Shown: positions 388 through 32,441 of the stretch, in pieces
Numbering within the stretch: position 1 is the stretch's first letter
How the letters are laid out: each line of letters starts with the position of its first letter
Assembly (NCBI GenBank): GCA_031288515.1
Contig: JAITRG010000077.1
Span: forward strand, 1 to 32,489
Direction: 5' to 3'
Source: Tannerellaceae bacterium
GTDB taxonomy: Bacteria; Bacteroidota; Bacteroidia; Bacteroidales; Tannerellaceae
Length of the DNA: 32,489 nt
Position numbers and translations under genes: made by a program
Notes under the pieces: generated by a model
What the model saw: the letters and a program-made list of their open reading frames with translations, nothing else
What the model was told of the DNA's origin: nothing
Databases searched by the model: none

Positions 388-626
388 GTGATTTTTCAGC
401 GTATTCTATTTCTACTTTAACACATTAATTCTTTCTCATCAAAAGCATAAAGCCCCCACCCCCTCTTCAGGCCCATACCATTAACCCGTTATACAGGCTT
501 GTTTGGCGACACCTTTCAGTTTTCAGCCGGTTTACAAGCGCTTGCGTATGAACAGCTATGGCTGAAAGAAGACCTTTCAGCCTCGTTTCAGCAAAAAAAT
601 TACAGGGCAGGCGAAAAGGAAAAAAT

Positions 627-802
627 CATTGAGACGCCTTTGGTAAATCATTGAGAAGACTCTGATGAACCATTAAGAAGACTTAAAAAAAGCGCTATGA
701 CGCCTTTGGTAAACCATTATAATGGTTTGGTAAAGAGTATATAATGGTTTACCGACAGCATTATAATAGTTTACTGAAGACTGTATAATGATTTTTTATG
801 GA
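627..802. repeat. Degenerate tandem array, eight 22-bp units
   Basis: Units in register: cattgagacgcctttggtaaat / cattgagaagactctgatgaac / cattaagaagacttaaaaaaag / cgctatgacgcctttggtaaac / cattataatggtttggtaaaga / gtatataatggtttaccgacag / cattataatagtttactgaaga / ctgtataatgattttttatgga. Confidence 0.7.
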
Positions 803-15608: not shown

Positions 15609-15662
15609 AAAATACATCTTTCTGTTATTTAATCAATTATAAACACAGACATTCTACGGTAG

Positions 15663-15700
15663 TGTCCAATAATTAGACAGTAGTGTAAAAAAATTAGACA
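15663..15700. promoter_or_regulatory. Paired 17-bp dyad sites (TGTCCAATAATTAGACA, gtag, TGTAAAAAAATTAGACA); candidate UAS for the sigma-54 promoter
   Basis: First site identical to 12427-12443; same 4-bp separation (21-bp centre spacing). Confidence 0.7.
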
Positions 15701-15754: not shown

Positions 15755-16408
15755 TTATCCTATCACCTTGGTTATGGGGTCAGACCAGGGGCCTTCCTGC
15801 AGGCGGGGGTTCATCCAGGCGGCGGTAAGGACGATGCGCCGGCCTTCGTCCTTCATGTTGAAGTAGAGCGTGAGCCGCAAGCGGGTAGACAATTCAAGAC
15901 GCCATTCCACTTCTTCTTCAAACTTCCAGTGGAGCTTGAAGCCATGATAGGGCTTGAGCTGTACGCCCTGCGTGGGCTGTCCGTGCTCGCTGCGGGCGAC
16001 GTATACCACGAGTTCGTCTTTCCGGTACGCGGTACTTACAAGGGGAGCTTCCGTGGGCACAGGCAGCGGCCGCCGTCCGGGGCGCACGCGGGGGCGGAGG
16101 CTCATGAGGGCTAGGGCGGCGTCGGGCACGGTTTCCTGGCCTTCAAGGTAGTTGATAAAGATCGAAAGGAAGCCCTTCAGATCGGCGAAGGCCCTCTTTT
16201 TTCCCACCGACGTAACATGGTTGCGCGTAGCGCGGTCGCTATTGGCCTGGTAAGCCTTGCTTGCGTCGGCTATCAGAGCGTAGAGGCTTGCCAGGCGCGC
16301 CCCGTCGAGGCCCCAGCTTGCCGAGTGTTCTTTACACTGCTCATAAATAGTGTTTACAAATGCCAGGAATTGCCCGTCCGGCAGCGCATGATAACGTACT
16401 TGCCCCAT
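15755..16408 (-). CDS. Uncharacterised 217-aa protein, paralog of 31459-32112 (paralog 1)
   Basis: MGQVRYHALPDGQFLAFVNTIYEQC...LRPRVRPGRRPLPVPTEAPL...QPTQGVQLKPYHGFKLHWKFEEE...AAWMNPRLQEGPWSDPITKVIG; start moved from 16465 to 16408 because length and N-terminus then match the paralog. Confidence 0.8.
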   Translation of the reverse strand: MGQVRYHALPDGQFLAFVNTIYEQCKEHSASWGLDGARLASLYALIADASKAYQANSDRATRNHVTSVGKKRAFADLKGFLSIFINYLEGQETVPDAALALMSLRPRVRPGRRPLPVPTEAPLVSTAYRKDELVVYVARSEHGQPTQGVQLKPYHGFKLHWKFEEEVEWRLELSTRLRLTLYFNMKDEGRRIVLTAAWMNPRLQEGPWSDPITKVIG

Positions 16409-16460
16409 AGCGTGTTTTTTTAAAGATAAAACAAAATGAACGTTCTTACAAAGAAGCCAT

Positions 16461-16505
16461 AGCAAAGATAAAAGAATTATCAGGAATCCCTATACTATTT
16501 CATTG
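16461..16505 (-). promoter_or_regulatory. Conserved promoter-like block of paralog 1, -7 element TATCTTTG at 16463-16470
   Basis: agcaaagataaaagaattatcaggaatccctatactatttcattg aligns with 32165-32209; -7 element lies 55 bp from the start codon in both loci. Confidence 0.6.
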
Positions 16506-17596
16506 ATTTTTATTTATTTCCACATAATTCTTACTTGTTTCCGGGCGATTCCTATCTATTTCCGGACAAGTCTTATCTATTCCCGGACGATTCTTATCTA
16601 TTCCCGGACGATCCTTATCTATTCCCGAGCGATCCTTATCTATTGTCGGGTAATTCCTATCTATTTCCAGGTGATTCTTATCTATTTTCGGACGATTCTT
16701 ATCTGTTTTCGGATGATTTCTATCTATTTCTGGGCGATTCCTATCTATTTCCAGATAAATCTTATTTATTTTCGAATAATTCTTATCTATTTTCGGGTGA
16801 TTCCTATTTATTTCCGGATGATTTTTATCTATTTTCAAGTAATTCTTATCTATTGCTAGATGATTCCTATCTATTTCCGGGCAATTCTTATTTATTGTCG
16901 GGTAATTTCTGTTTATTTCTGGGTAATTCCTATCTATTTTTAGATAAATCTTATCTATTTTCGGATGATTCCTATTTATTTCCGGATGATTTTTATCTAT
17001 TTTTGAGTAATCCTTATCTATTTCTGAATAATTTCTATCTATTGTTGGGTGATTTTTATCTATTTTCAAGTAATTTTTATCTATTGCTGGATGATTCCTA
17101 TCTATTTCCGGGCAATTCTTATTTATTGTCAGATAATTTCTGTTTATTTCTGGGTAATTCTTATCTATTTTCAGGTAATTCCTATTTATTTCCGGGTGAT
17201 TTTTATCTATTTTTGAGTAAATCTTATCTATTTCTGGATAATTTCTATCTATTGTTGGGTAATTTTTATCTATTATTAAGTAATTTTTATCTATTTCAGG
17301 TAATTTTTATCTATTTTCAGGTAATTTTTATCTATTTTCGGGTGAATTATATTTGTTTCTATGCAAATTATATTTGTTTTTTGATAATTTTTATGTGTTT
17401 CCAGGTGAATTTCATGTATTTCAGATAAATTTTATGTGTTATTGAATGAAGTTTATGTGTTATTGAGTAAATCTTATTTGTTTTTGAATAAAATTTATAT
17501 GTTTTTGGATAAACCTTATTTATTTTTAATAGATTCTACATGTCTTCAAGTTGACTTTATGTATTTTTCTGCAAATTCTATGTGTTTTTGAGTAAA
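16505..17596. repeat. 21-bp-period tandem array, about 52 units, consensus near gattcttatctattttcgggt, with higher-order repeats
   Basis: Manual register, e.g. gattcctatctatttccggac / gattcttatctattcccggac / gatccttatctattgtcgggt; 20-bp units only in the distal part. Confidence 0.95.
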
Positions 17597-17613
17597 CTTT
17601 GAATGAATAATCT

Positions 17614-31458: not shown

Positions 31459-32112
31459 TTATCCTACCACCATGCCGATGGAGGGCGCCCAGGGGCCTTC
31501 CTGCAGGCGCGGGTTTATCCATGCTGCTGAGATGGTTACGCGGCGCGTTTCATCCTTCGCATCAAAAAAGATGGTGTGATGAAGGCGGGTGGATATTTCG
31601 ACATGCCAGTCTGCTTCCTCTTCGAACTTCCAGCGCAGCTTAAAGCCGTGATAGGGCTTAAGCTGTACGCCATGGGCGGGCTGTCCCTGCTCGCTGCGGG
31701 TAACGTATACCGTTATCTCGTCGTGCTGCTGCGAAAAGCGGAGCAGCGGGGCTTCCGTGGGTACGGGCAGCGGCTTGTGCGCAGGCTGCGTGCGCGGGCG
31801 GAGATGCATGTCTGCCAGGTTTTCGTCCGTCACCTCTTCATTGCCTTCAAGGGCGTCAATGAAGAGCGAGAGGAAATGTTTCAACTCTCCGAATGTCAGT
31901 TTTTTCTCCACAGAGGTAAGATGATTGCGCGTGGAAGGCGTATTGTTGGCTATGTATGCATTGGTAGCTAAGCGTGTATGCATTTCCAGCTTTTTTACGC
32001 GTTCTGCGTCTAACTTCCAGTTAATCTGATGGTCATTAACCTGTGTGTAAAAATCGTTGGCAAAAGCAATGAACTCTTTGTCCGATTGCTTTAAGGTACT
32101 TCTCCTGTTCAT
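31459..32112 (-). CDS. Uncharacterised 217-aa protein, paralog of 15755-16408 (paralog 2)
   Basis: NDHQINWKLDAERV...STRNHLTSVEKKLTFGELKHFLSLFIDALEGN...LRPRTQPAHKPLPVPTEAPLL...GVQLKPYHGFKLRWKFEEE...AAWINPRLQEGPW. Confidence 0.85.
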   Translation of the reverse strand: MNRRSTLKQSDKEFIAFANDFYTQVNDHQINWKLDAERVKKLEMHTRLATNAYIANNTPSTRNHLTSVEKKLTFGELKHFLSLFIDALEGNEEVTDENLADMHLRPRTQPAHKPLPVPTEAPLLRFSQQHDEITVYVTRSEQGQPAHGVQLKPYHGFKLRWKFEEEADWHVEISTRLHHTIFFDAKDETRRVTISAAWINPRLQEGPWAPSIGMVVG

Positions 32113-32164
32113 GATTAATTTAATTTAAGCGTTTAATATAATGATCCTTTTTCTTATAAAGCGT

Positions 32165-32209
32165 ATCAAAGATAGCAGAATTATTGATAACATCTATATT
32201 ATTTCAATT
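32165..32209 (-). promoter_or_regulatory. Conserved promoter-like block of paralog 2, -7 element TATCTTTG at 32167-32174
   Basis: atcaaagatagcagaattattgataacatctatattatttcaatt, matching 16461-16505. Confidence 0.6.
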
Positions 32210-32231
32210 TTTTTTTGCATGGGATTGAAAA

Positions 32232-32441
32232 AAATCCGCGCAGAAACGGGTGATTTCCACGCAGAAACGAGCCTTTTCTACACGGAAACGAGCGATTTCC
32301 ACACAGAAACGGGCTTTTTCCACACGGAAACGGGCTTTTTCCACGCGGAAACGGGCGATTTCCACGCGGAAACGGGCGGCTTCCACGCGGAAACGGGCGG
32401 CTTCCACGCGGAAACGGGCGATTTCCGTGGGGAAAGTTACG
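32232..32441. repeat. 21-bp-period tandem array, about 10 units, consensus near atttccacgcggaaacgggcg
   Basis: Units 32253, 32274, 32295, 32316, 32337, 32358, 32379, 32400 in exact 21-bp register; degenerate ends. Confidence 0.95.

What the first reader, a model, noticed from the sequence alone, without database searches (positions are those of the whole stretch)
15755..17600. Candidate new locus type, copy 1: 217-aa orphan protein, conserved promoter block, then a ~52-unit 21-bp array
Seen: paralog 1 (start 16408) has TATCTTTG at 16463-16470 and, with no gene between, a ~1.1-kb array of 21-bp units starting at 16505. Everything but the array sequence is repeated at 31459-32441: 217-aa protein, 55-bp spacing from -7 element to ATG, ~45-bp block, array directly upstream of the block. 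Established: 21 bp is about two turns of B-DNA, so each unit shows the same face to a binding protein; repeat arrays next to promoters are known sources of copy-number-dependent expression change. Inference: a promoter-linked minisatellite module in which the array acts as a multi-site upstream regulatory region or expression tuner.
Basis: partly seen in the sequence, partly recalled or inferred. Interest (0 to 1): 0.88.

Follow-up and report, generated by a model that had tools for sequence, protein, structure and literature searches.

The report
Orphan gene with private repeat array
A family of unstudied bacterial genes, found in termite-gut bacteria of two phyla, is almost always preceded by its own long array of 21-letter DNA repeats whose letters differ from gene to gene; some of these repeats are also scattered at fixed places around the chromosome, which suggests a new kind of paired protein-and-DNA-address system.

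Summary
Copy 1 (15755-16408, minus) has a 52-unit, exactly 21-bp array upstream. All four paralogs in this genome have such an array, each with a different unit. Of 116 full-length relatives with at least 300 bp of 5' flank, 109 have a 20-22-bp array; among named records (at least 150 bp) 70 of 71, including 9 of 9 Planctomycetaceae. Ordinary genes give 13 of 274. The protein matches no Pfam, NCBIfam or PDB sequence; AlphaFold predicts a helical bundle plus a fibronectin-III domain. All 80 named relatives listed appear to be termite-gut MAGs.

The copy-2 unit recurs in about ten dispersed arrays here and in two sister species, often at orthologous positions. Its palindromic core is conserved without compensatory changes, which points to a duplex protein-binding site, not RNA. 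An unrelated family (DUF6261) carries 40-43-bp arrays.

Best reading: helically phased binding arrays, probably for the encoded protein, for self-regulation and, in some members, dispersed chromosomal sites. No binding was shown; near-identical paralogs with different units, and the protein's neutral charge, speak against direct recognition.

The parts
15755..16408 (-). copy 1 gene, 217 aa, helical bundle + FnIII family (family A)
   Evidence: fold inferred from the copy-2 model
16463..16470 (-). TATCTTTG, -7-type promoter element of copy 1, between array and gene
   Evidence: same -62 spacing in window-clade members
16505..17597 (.). array 1: 52 units of 21 bp, consensus in gene direction AATTACCCGGAAATAGATAAG; no dispersed copies of size found in this genome
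31459..32112 (-). copy 2 gene, 217 aa, same family
32167..32174 (-). TATCTTTG promoter element of copy 2
32235..32426 (.). array 2: 9.1 units of 21 bp, palindromic core TTTCCRCGCRGAAAC; same unit in about ten dispersed arrays elsewhere in the genome

Best explanation
The locus is one member of a protein-plus-array module. SHOWN: a 217-235-aa protein (predicted helical bundle + fibronectin-III domain) whose gene is preceded by a tandem array of exactly 21-bp units; the unit differs from paralog to paralog; for copy 2 the same unit forms about ten further arrays outside recognisable genes, many at orthologous sites in two sister species; the unit core is palindromic and conserved without compensatory changes. 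INFERRED: the array is a row of double-stranded binding sites that present one face every two helical turns, so that many copies of a dimeric protein can assemble side by side. INFERRED, less sure: the binder is the protein encoded next to the array (perhaps with a partner, since it has no known DNA-binding domain); at its own locus it regulates its own promoter, and in members such as copy 2 it also coats the dispersed arrays, as a small regulon or as nucleoid anchor points. Copy 1, whose unit is not dispersed, would be a purely self-acting member.
For: Linkage: 109 of 116 full-length members with >=300 bp flank; 70 of 71 named loci with >=150 bp flank, two phyla; control 13 of 274 ordinary ORFs against 4 of 4 members in the same sample. 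Period 21 or 42 in 69 of 75 arrays upstream of the family in the named loci. Dyads in units: stem >=6 in 25 of 114, 3.0 expected by shuffling. Dispersal: own genome; L004 unit at two more loci; one of 14 G010 members matches an orphan array at 19 of 21. Among 18 genomes of the genus the copy-2 unit is found in 3, which include both that carry the copy-2 gene. Positional conservation in three species, and a core with C4 98%, G11 99%, T2 96% over 370 units. No positive covariation at symmetric positions, and 7 compensatory against 148 single-side changes in 22 dyad arrays: a site read as duplex DNA. Orthologs at 83% identity keep unit and unit number.
Against: No binding shown. Three paralogs of G015 that are 88-91% identical have units matching at only 10-13 of 21 positions, shuffled 8.5-9.3, hard to square with direct recognition unless only a short core is read. 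Median pI 6.8, no basic half. No known DNA-binding domain in Pfam. G008 has the dispersed copy-2 arrays but no copy-2 gene was seen there (58% complete). Array 1 of the finding has no dispersed copies and no strong dyad. Many units (66 of 114) have stems under 5. Dispersed arrays show no promoter preference (one side upstream 12, both 7, none 2, against background 10, 4, 2).
Confidence: 0.4

Rival explanations
1. Promoter-linked expression tuner: the array is an upstream regulatory region of its own gene, bound by some host factor, and unit number sets expression.
For: Array close to the gene, median 90 bp between array end and ATG; conserved promoter at -62 directly downstream in the window clade.
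Against: Same units at dispersed sites without promoter preference; promoter motif on the far side of the array in 18 of 98; unit number stable between orthologs; a host factor would not explain a different unit for each paralog.
Confidence: 0.2
2. REP/RAYT- or MITE-like selfish repeat: the arrays are non-autonomous elements that spread with help of the linked protein or of an IS transposase; binding or regulation is secondary.
For: Dispersed arrays; two sites with an array in G000 and G015 and none in G016, one of them also empty in G011; Porphyromonas gingivalis has 23- and 41-nt minisatellites inside MITEs (PMC4596501, sections 5 and 7 read).
Against: No transposase or HUH domain in Pfam; arrays persist at orthologous sites across three species; no terminal inverted repeats obvious at the junctions aligned, though none were searched for systematically.
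Confidence: 0.2
3. Hitchhiking: the arrays are inert minisatellites common in these genomes, and the gene family tends to land beside them.
For: Minisatellites are frequent in G010 (about one per 13 kb); near-identical paralogs sit beside different units.
Against: Array on the 5' side and hardly any 21-bp repeat 3' in the 30 loci; fixed 21-bp period beside this family against 40-43 beside DUF6261; conserved unit core over species.
Confidence: 0.12
4. Transcribed leader: the array is a 5' UTR of repeated RNA elements that controls translation.
For: Promoter motif 5' of the array in 18 of 98 loci, 2.6 expected; some arrays end 5-45 bp before the ATG.
Against: In the window clade the promoter is downstream of the array; no excess of compensatory changes; dispersed arrays lie between convergent genes too (2 loci).
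Confidence: 0.06

Closest known systems
BrickBuilt and MITE464/PgRS minisatellite MITEs of Porphyromonas gingivalis (PMC4596501)
   Same: Tandem 23-nt and 41-nt units, intergenic, dispersed about 10-20 times, in a Bacteroidales genome; segments with promoter activity.
   Different: No linked protein family reported; units 23 or 41 nt, not 21; leader/tail with IS5-type inverted repeats; a unit per species instead of a private unit for each paralog.
REP/REPIN-RAYT systems (PMC3116915, abstract seen)
   Same: A protein gene sits beside palindromic repeats that are dispersed in extragenic space; different repeat classes pair with different proteins.
   Different: RAYT is a tyrosine transposase; here a helical bundle + FnIII protein. 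REPINs are doublets, not long head-to-tail arrays.
Iteron-Rep loci of plasmids (recalled)
   Same: Direct repeats about two helical turns apart directly upstream of a gene, private repeat sequence per replicon.
   Different: Chromosomal-type contigs, multi-copy, up to 52 units, no Rep domain, no relative on plasmids.
DUF6261 (PF19775)
   Same: Unstudied, multi-copy in the same genomes, beside private arrays with dyads.
   Different: Unrelated by profile comparison; 40-43-bp period; array upstream in 15 of 28 only.

Membership tests
REP/RAYT | Y1/HUH transposase domain in the linked protein | tested here: not met
   No Pfam transposase match for the window proteins at E<=10 or for 7 relatives at E<=1; model is helical bundle + FnIII
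REP/RAYT | cognate repeats dispersed in extragenic space | tested here: met
   copy-2 unit; not for copy 1
BrickBuilt-type minisatellite MITE | leader and tail with terminal inverted repeats | tested here: inconclusive
   two junctions aligned and read by eye only, no TIR seen; no systematic search
BrickBuilt-type minisatellite MITE | 23-nt repeat unit | tested here: not met
   unit is 21 bp and private to each locus
Iteron-Rep | replication initiator domain | tested here: not met
   no Pfam/NCBIfam match; no plasmid relative by tblastn
CRISPR | repeats separated by unique spacers | tested here: not met
   units are contiguous, period 21 without spacers
Fibronectin type III fold | FnIII beta-sandwich | tested here: met
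   C-terminal domain of both models: Foldseek best E 1.4e-6; VIA Z 11.7 over 96 residues, rmsd 2.4
Family A module (this work) | full-length member with 20-22-bp array upstream | tested here: met
   both window copies; 109 of 116 overall
Sequence-specific DNA-binding protein of its own array | binding of the encoded protein to its unit | not testable with these tools
   needs EMSA, DAP-seq or ChIP

The most novel reading that the evidence does not exclude
A multiplexed, orthogonal protein-DNA address system: each paralog owns a private, helically phased satellite (two turns for family A, four turns for DUF6261), with its own cis array and, in some, dispersed chromosomal arrays kept at fixed sites over speciation, like a set of mutually insulated centromere- or nucleoid-anchor systems, exchanged between Bacteroidota and Planctomycetota inside termite guts.
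Probability: 0.2. Interest if true: 0.92.

Novelty: categorically new. Interest (0 to 1): 0.78.

Why it matters
Satellite-like arrays are rare and mostly unexplained in bacteria; one survey reports dispersed satellite families only in Leptospira interrogans and Methanocella conradii (PMC6749651, abstract). Here arrays have a gene partner, a fixed helical period and species-stable positions, so their function becomes testable: the partner can be purified, its DNA preference measured, and its arrays deleted. If the protein binds its private unit, dozens of natural orthogonal protein-DNA pairs are at hand. It would also suggest a partner-based explanation for the 22-, 23- and 41-nt repeats of other Bacteroidales. 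'Categorically new' refers to the anatomy; the function is unproven.

Tried and rejected
Coding array: ORFs run through arrays on either strand, but position bits of array 1 show no third-position excess, and 41-bp arrays cannot keep a frame. RNA hairpin: disfavoured by lack of compensatory change. Phage or plasmid cargo: no relatives in viral contigs, phages or plasmids. Homology of family A with DUF6261: none by hhalign. Selection for orthogonality among paralogs of one genome: unit similarity of same-genome and different-genome pairs does not differ clearly (9.65 against 9.85 at 50-60% identity, 10.26 against 11.03 at 60% and above). GU-strand asymmetry goes with an A-over-T excess on the gene strand and was not pursued. 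PDB sequence search with the family profile: nothing below E 0.12. Fold list of the viral library: mainly tail proteins with FnIII domains. The VIA list covers only the FnIII half; the helical half was not searched alone. Literature: searches listed no paper on this family or module; DUF6261 occurs in one unrelated paper. Absence from print is claimed for those searches only.

Rows dropped: of 144 nonredundant family ORFs 138 counted as full length, 116 of these with >=300 bp flank. Unit statistics use 114 arrays with a 21-letter consensus of 117 with period 21; promoter counts use 98 with enough flank. Of 246 relatives only the best 80 were shown and used. Of the hits only those fetched as loci were used. 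Of the DUF6261 matches the 30 fetched loci were examined, 28 of them with enough flank.

Full report
OBSERVATION. The copy-1 gene (15755-16408, minus) encodes 217 aa; TATCTTTG lies at 16463-16470 on the same strand; a period-21 array fills 16505-17597 and counts 52 units. Copy 2 (31459-32112) is 56% identical and has a 9.1-unit array with a different sequence at 32235-32426. The -62 promoter motif is in both.

THE FAMILY. Four members occur in this genome, and all four have a 21-bp array upstream with four different units. Pfam, NCBIfam and PHROGs have no matching family. In 60 relatives 13 genomes had a hit by single-protein search; by profile 11 of 18 genomes of the genus, up to 17 matches in one, 10 of 295 of the order and, at a stricter E of 1e-10, 2 of 395 of the phylum. 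A scan of named genomes gave 246 relatives; the 80 listed all belong to one MAG series: Tannerellaceae and Tannerella, Prevotellaceae, Dysgonamonadaceae, Proteiniphilum, Odoribacteraceae, Symbiothrix, unplaced Bacteroidales and 11 Planctomycetaceae. A paper names bins Gsp477, Roe453 and Gx485 of this series as from termites (PMC11707648, passages); that the other codes are termites too is inferred. So the niche is termite guts for the records seen; further relatives of unknown habitat exist.

LINKAGE. Of 138 full-length nonredundant members, 116 had at least 300 bp upstream, and 109 of these had a 20-22-bp array; misses were L109, L064, L029, L066, L080, L076, L072, four of them from one distant genus. 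Within 600 bp it is 93 of 104. Among named loci with at least 150 bp it is 70 of 71, miss L109. In an unselected 400-kb sample of one relative, 13 of 274 ordinary ORFs had such an array within 600 bp, family 4 of 4. In the flanks of the named loci, 23 of 277 other ORFs had one, many of them apparently the same array seen from a divergent neighbour. Upstream of the family in the named loci the period was 21 in 56, 42 in 13, 22 in 2 and other in 4 arrays.

THE UNITS. Units are near random to each other below 50% protein identity and only weakly similar above 60%. Three paralogs at 88-91% identity differ (10-13 of 21), while the ortholog pair L001/L005 at 83% keeps its unit (16 of 21). Dyads are enriched: stem of 6 or more in 25 of 114 against 3.0 expected, 5 or more in 48 against 12.9; loops of 0-2, too short for an RNA hairpin, make up 29 of those 48.

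DISPERSED ARRAYS. The array-2 unit matches about ten other places in this genome, none inside a recognisable gene, several running into a contig end. In the genus it is in 3 of 18 genomes: this one, G015 (with the orthologous gene) and G008 (58% complete, gene not seen). Many of these arrays sit beside orthologous genes in two or three of the species. Over 370 units from 35 arrays the core reads TTTCCRCGCRGAAAC with T2 96%, C4 98%, C9 94%, G11 99%; symmetric positions do not covary positively. In 22 other dyad arrays 148 single-side and 7 compensatory changes were counted, with 15.4 double changes of any kind expected. Two sites are empty in other species. The L004 unit has two further loci; L002 and copy 1 none of size. 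In relative G010, 1 of 14 linked units matched an orphan array at 19 of 21, two more at 16-17, null maximum 15.

PROMOTERS. On 98 loci the motif TA[TCA][ACT]TTTG is 5' of the array in 18 (2.6 expected) and between array and gene in 17 (3.2 expected), never both. The window clade has the second layout. The other 63 loci show no such motif, so this is a partial picture.

THE PROTEIN. Two AlphaFold models (mean pLDDT 91 and 94) give a helical bundle (about residues 11-111) and a C-terminal FnIII domain. pI median 6.8.

A SECOND FAMILY. In the same genomes DUF6261 reaches 44 matches (9 here). Of 28 loci with enough flank 15 have an array upstream, 13 of them at 40-43 bp. It is not detectably homologous to family A. 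In G015 a DUF6261 gene with a 42-bp array lies upstream of the gene that borders copy 1 here.

MECHANISM. The fixed period of two or four helical turns, the dyads, the conserved core without compensation, and the stable positions fit rows of duplex binding sites. That the neighbour protein is the binder follows from linkage and partial co-occurrence only; the unit change among near-identical paralogs and the neutral charge count against it, and a partner or a short recognition core may be needed. Self-regulation and nucleoid anchoring cannot be told apart here.

KNOWN SYSTEMS. P. gingivalis BrickBuilt and PgRS (PMC4596501, abstract, section 5 and part 1 of section 7 read) are the nearest repeats, without a partner protein. 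REP/RAYT (PMC3116915, abstract) is the nearest protein-repeat pair, with a different protein. Searches for the module in print listed nothing on it.

Noticed in passing
L306-L335; L182-L201 (window genus): DUF6261 genes are expanded to as many as 44 matches per genome and often have 40-43-bp arrays upstream (13 of 28 loci; 15 of 28 with any array) or, in some, downstream.
   Followed up: partly
L182-L201 (400 kb of G010): Minisatellites of 21, 22-23 and 41-42 bp occur about once per 13 kb, several orphan arrays sharing a unit at distant loci (for example TCACAACGTTGTGA at C70:82922, 83107 and 212661).
   Followed up: partly
L154:1-220: A palindromic 21-bp array (GTCAGTATTGAGCGTACTGAC) lies directly upstream of a pair of AraC-like genes (by eye), not of a family A gene.
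   Followed up: no
window 15659-15700: Two copies of a 21-bp unit (TGTCTAATTATTGGACACTAC region) 3' of copy 1.
   Followed up: no
window 623-794: Degenerate 22-bp repeats downstream of the SbcC-like gene at the left end of the window (gene name by eye).
   Followed up: no
L270:3220-4747: In G015 a DUF6261 gene with a 42-bp array occupies the side of the endonuclease/exonuclease-type gene (by eye) where this genome has copy 1 and array 1, as if modules were exchanged at one site.
   Followed up: partly
98 loci: Two promoter layouts (array inside or outside the transcript) within one family, never both motifs at one locus.
   Followed up: partly
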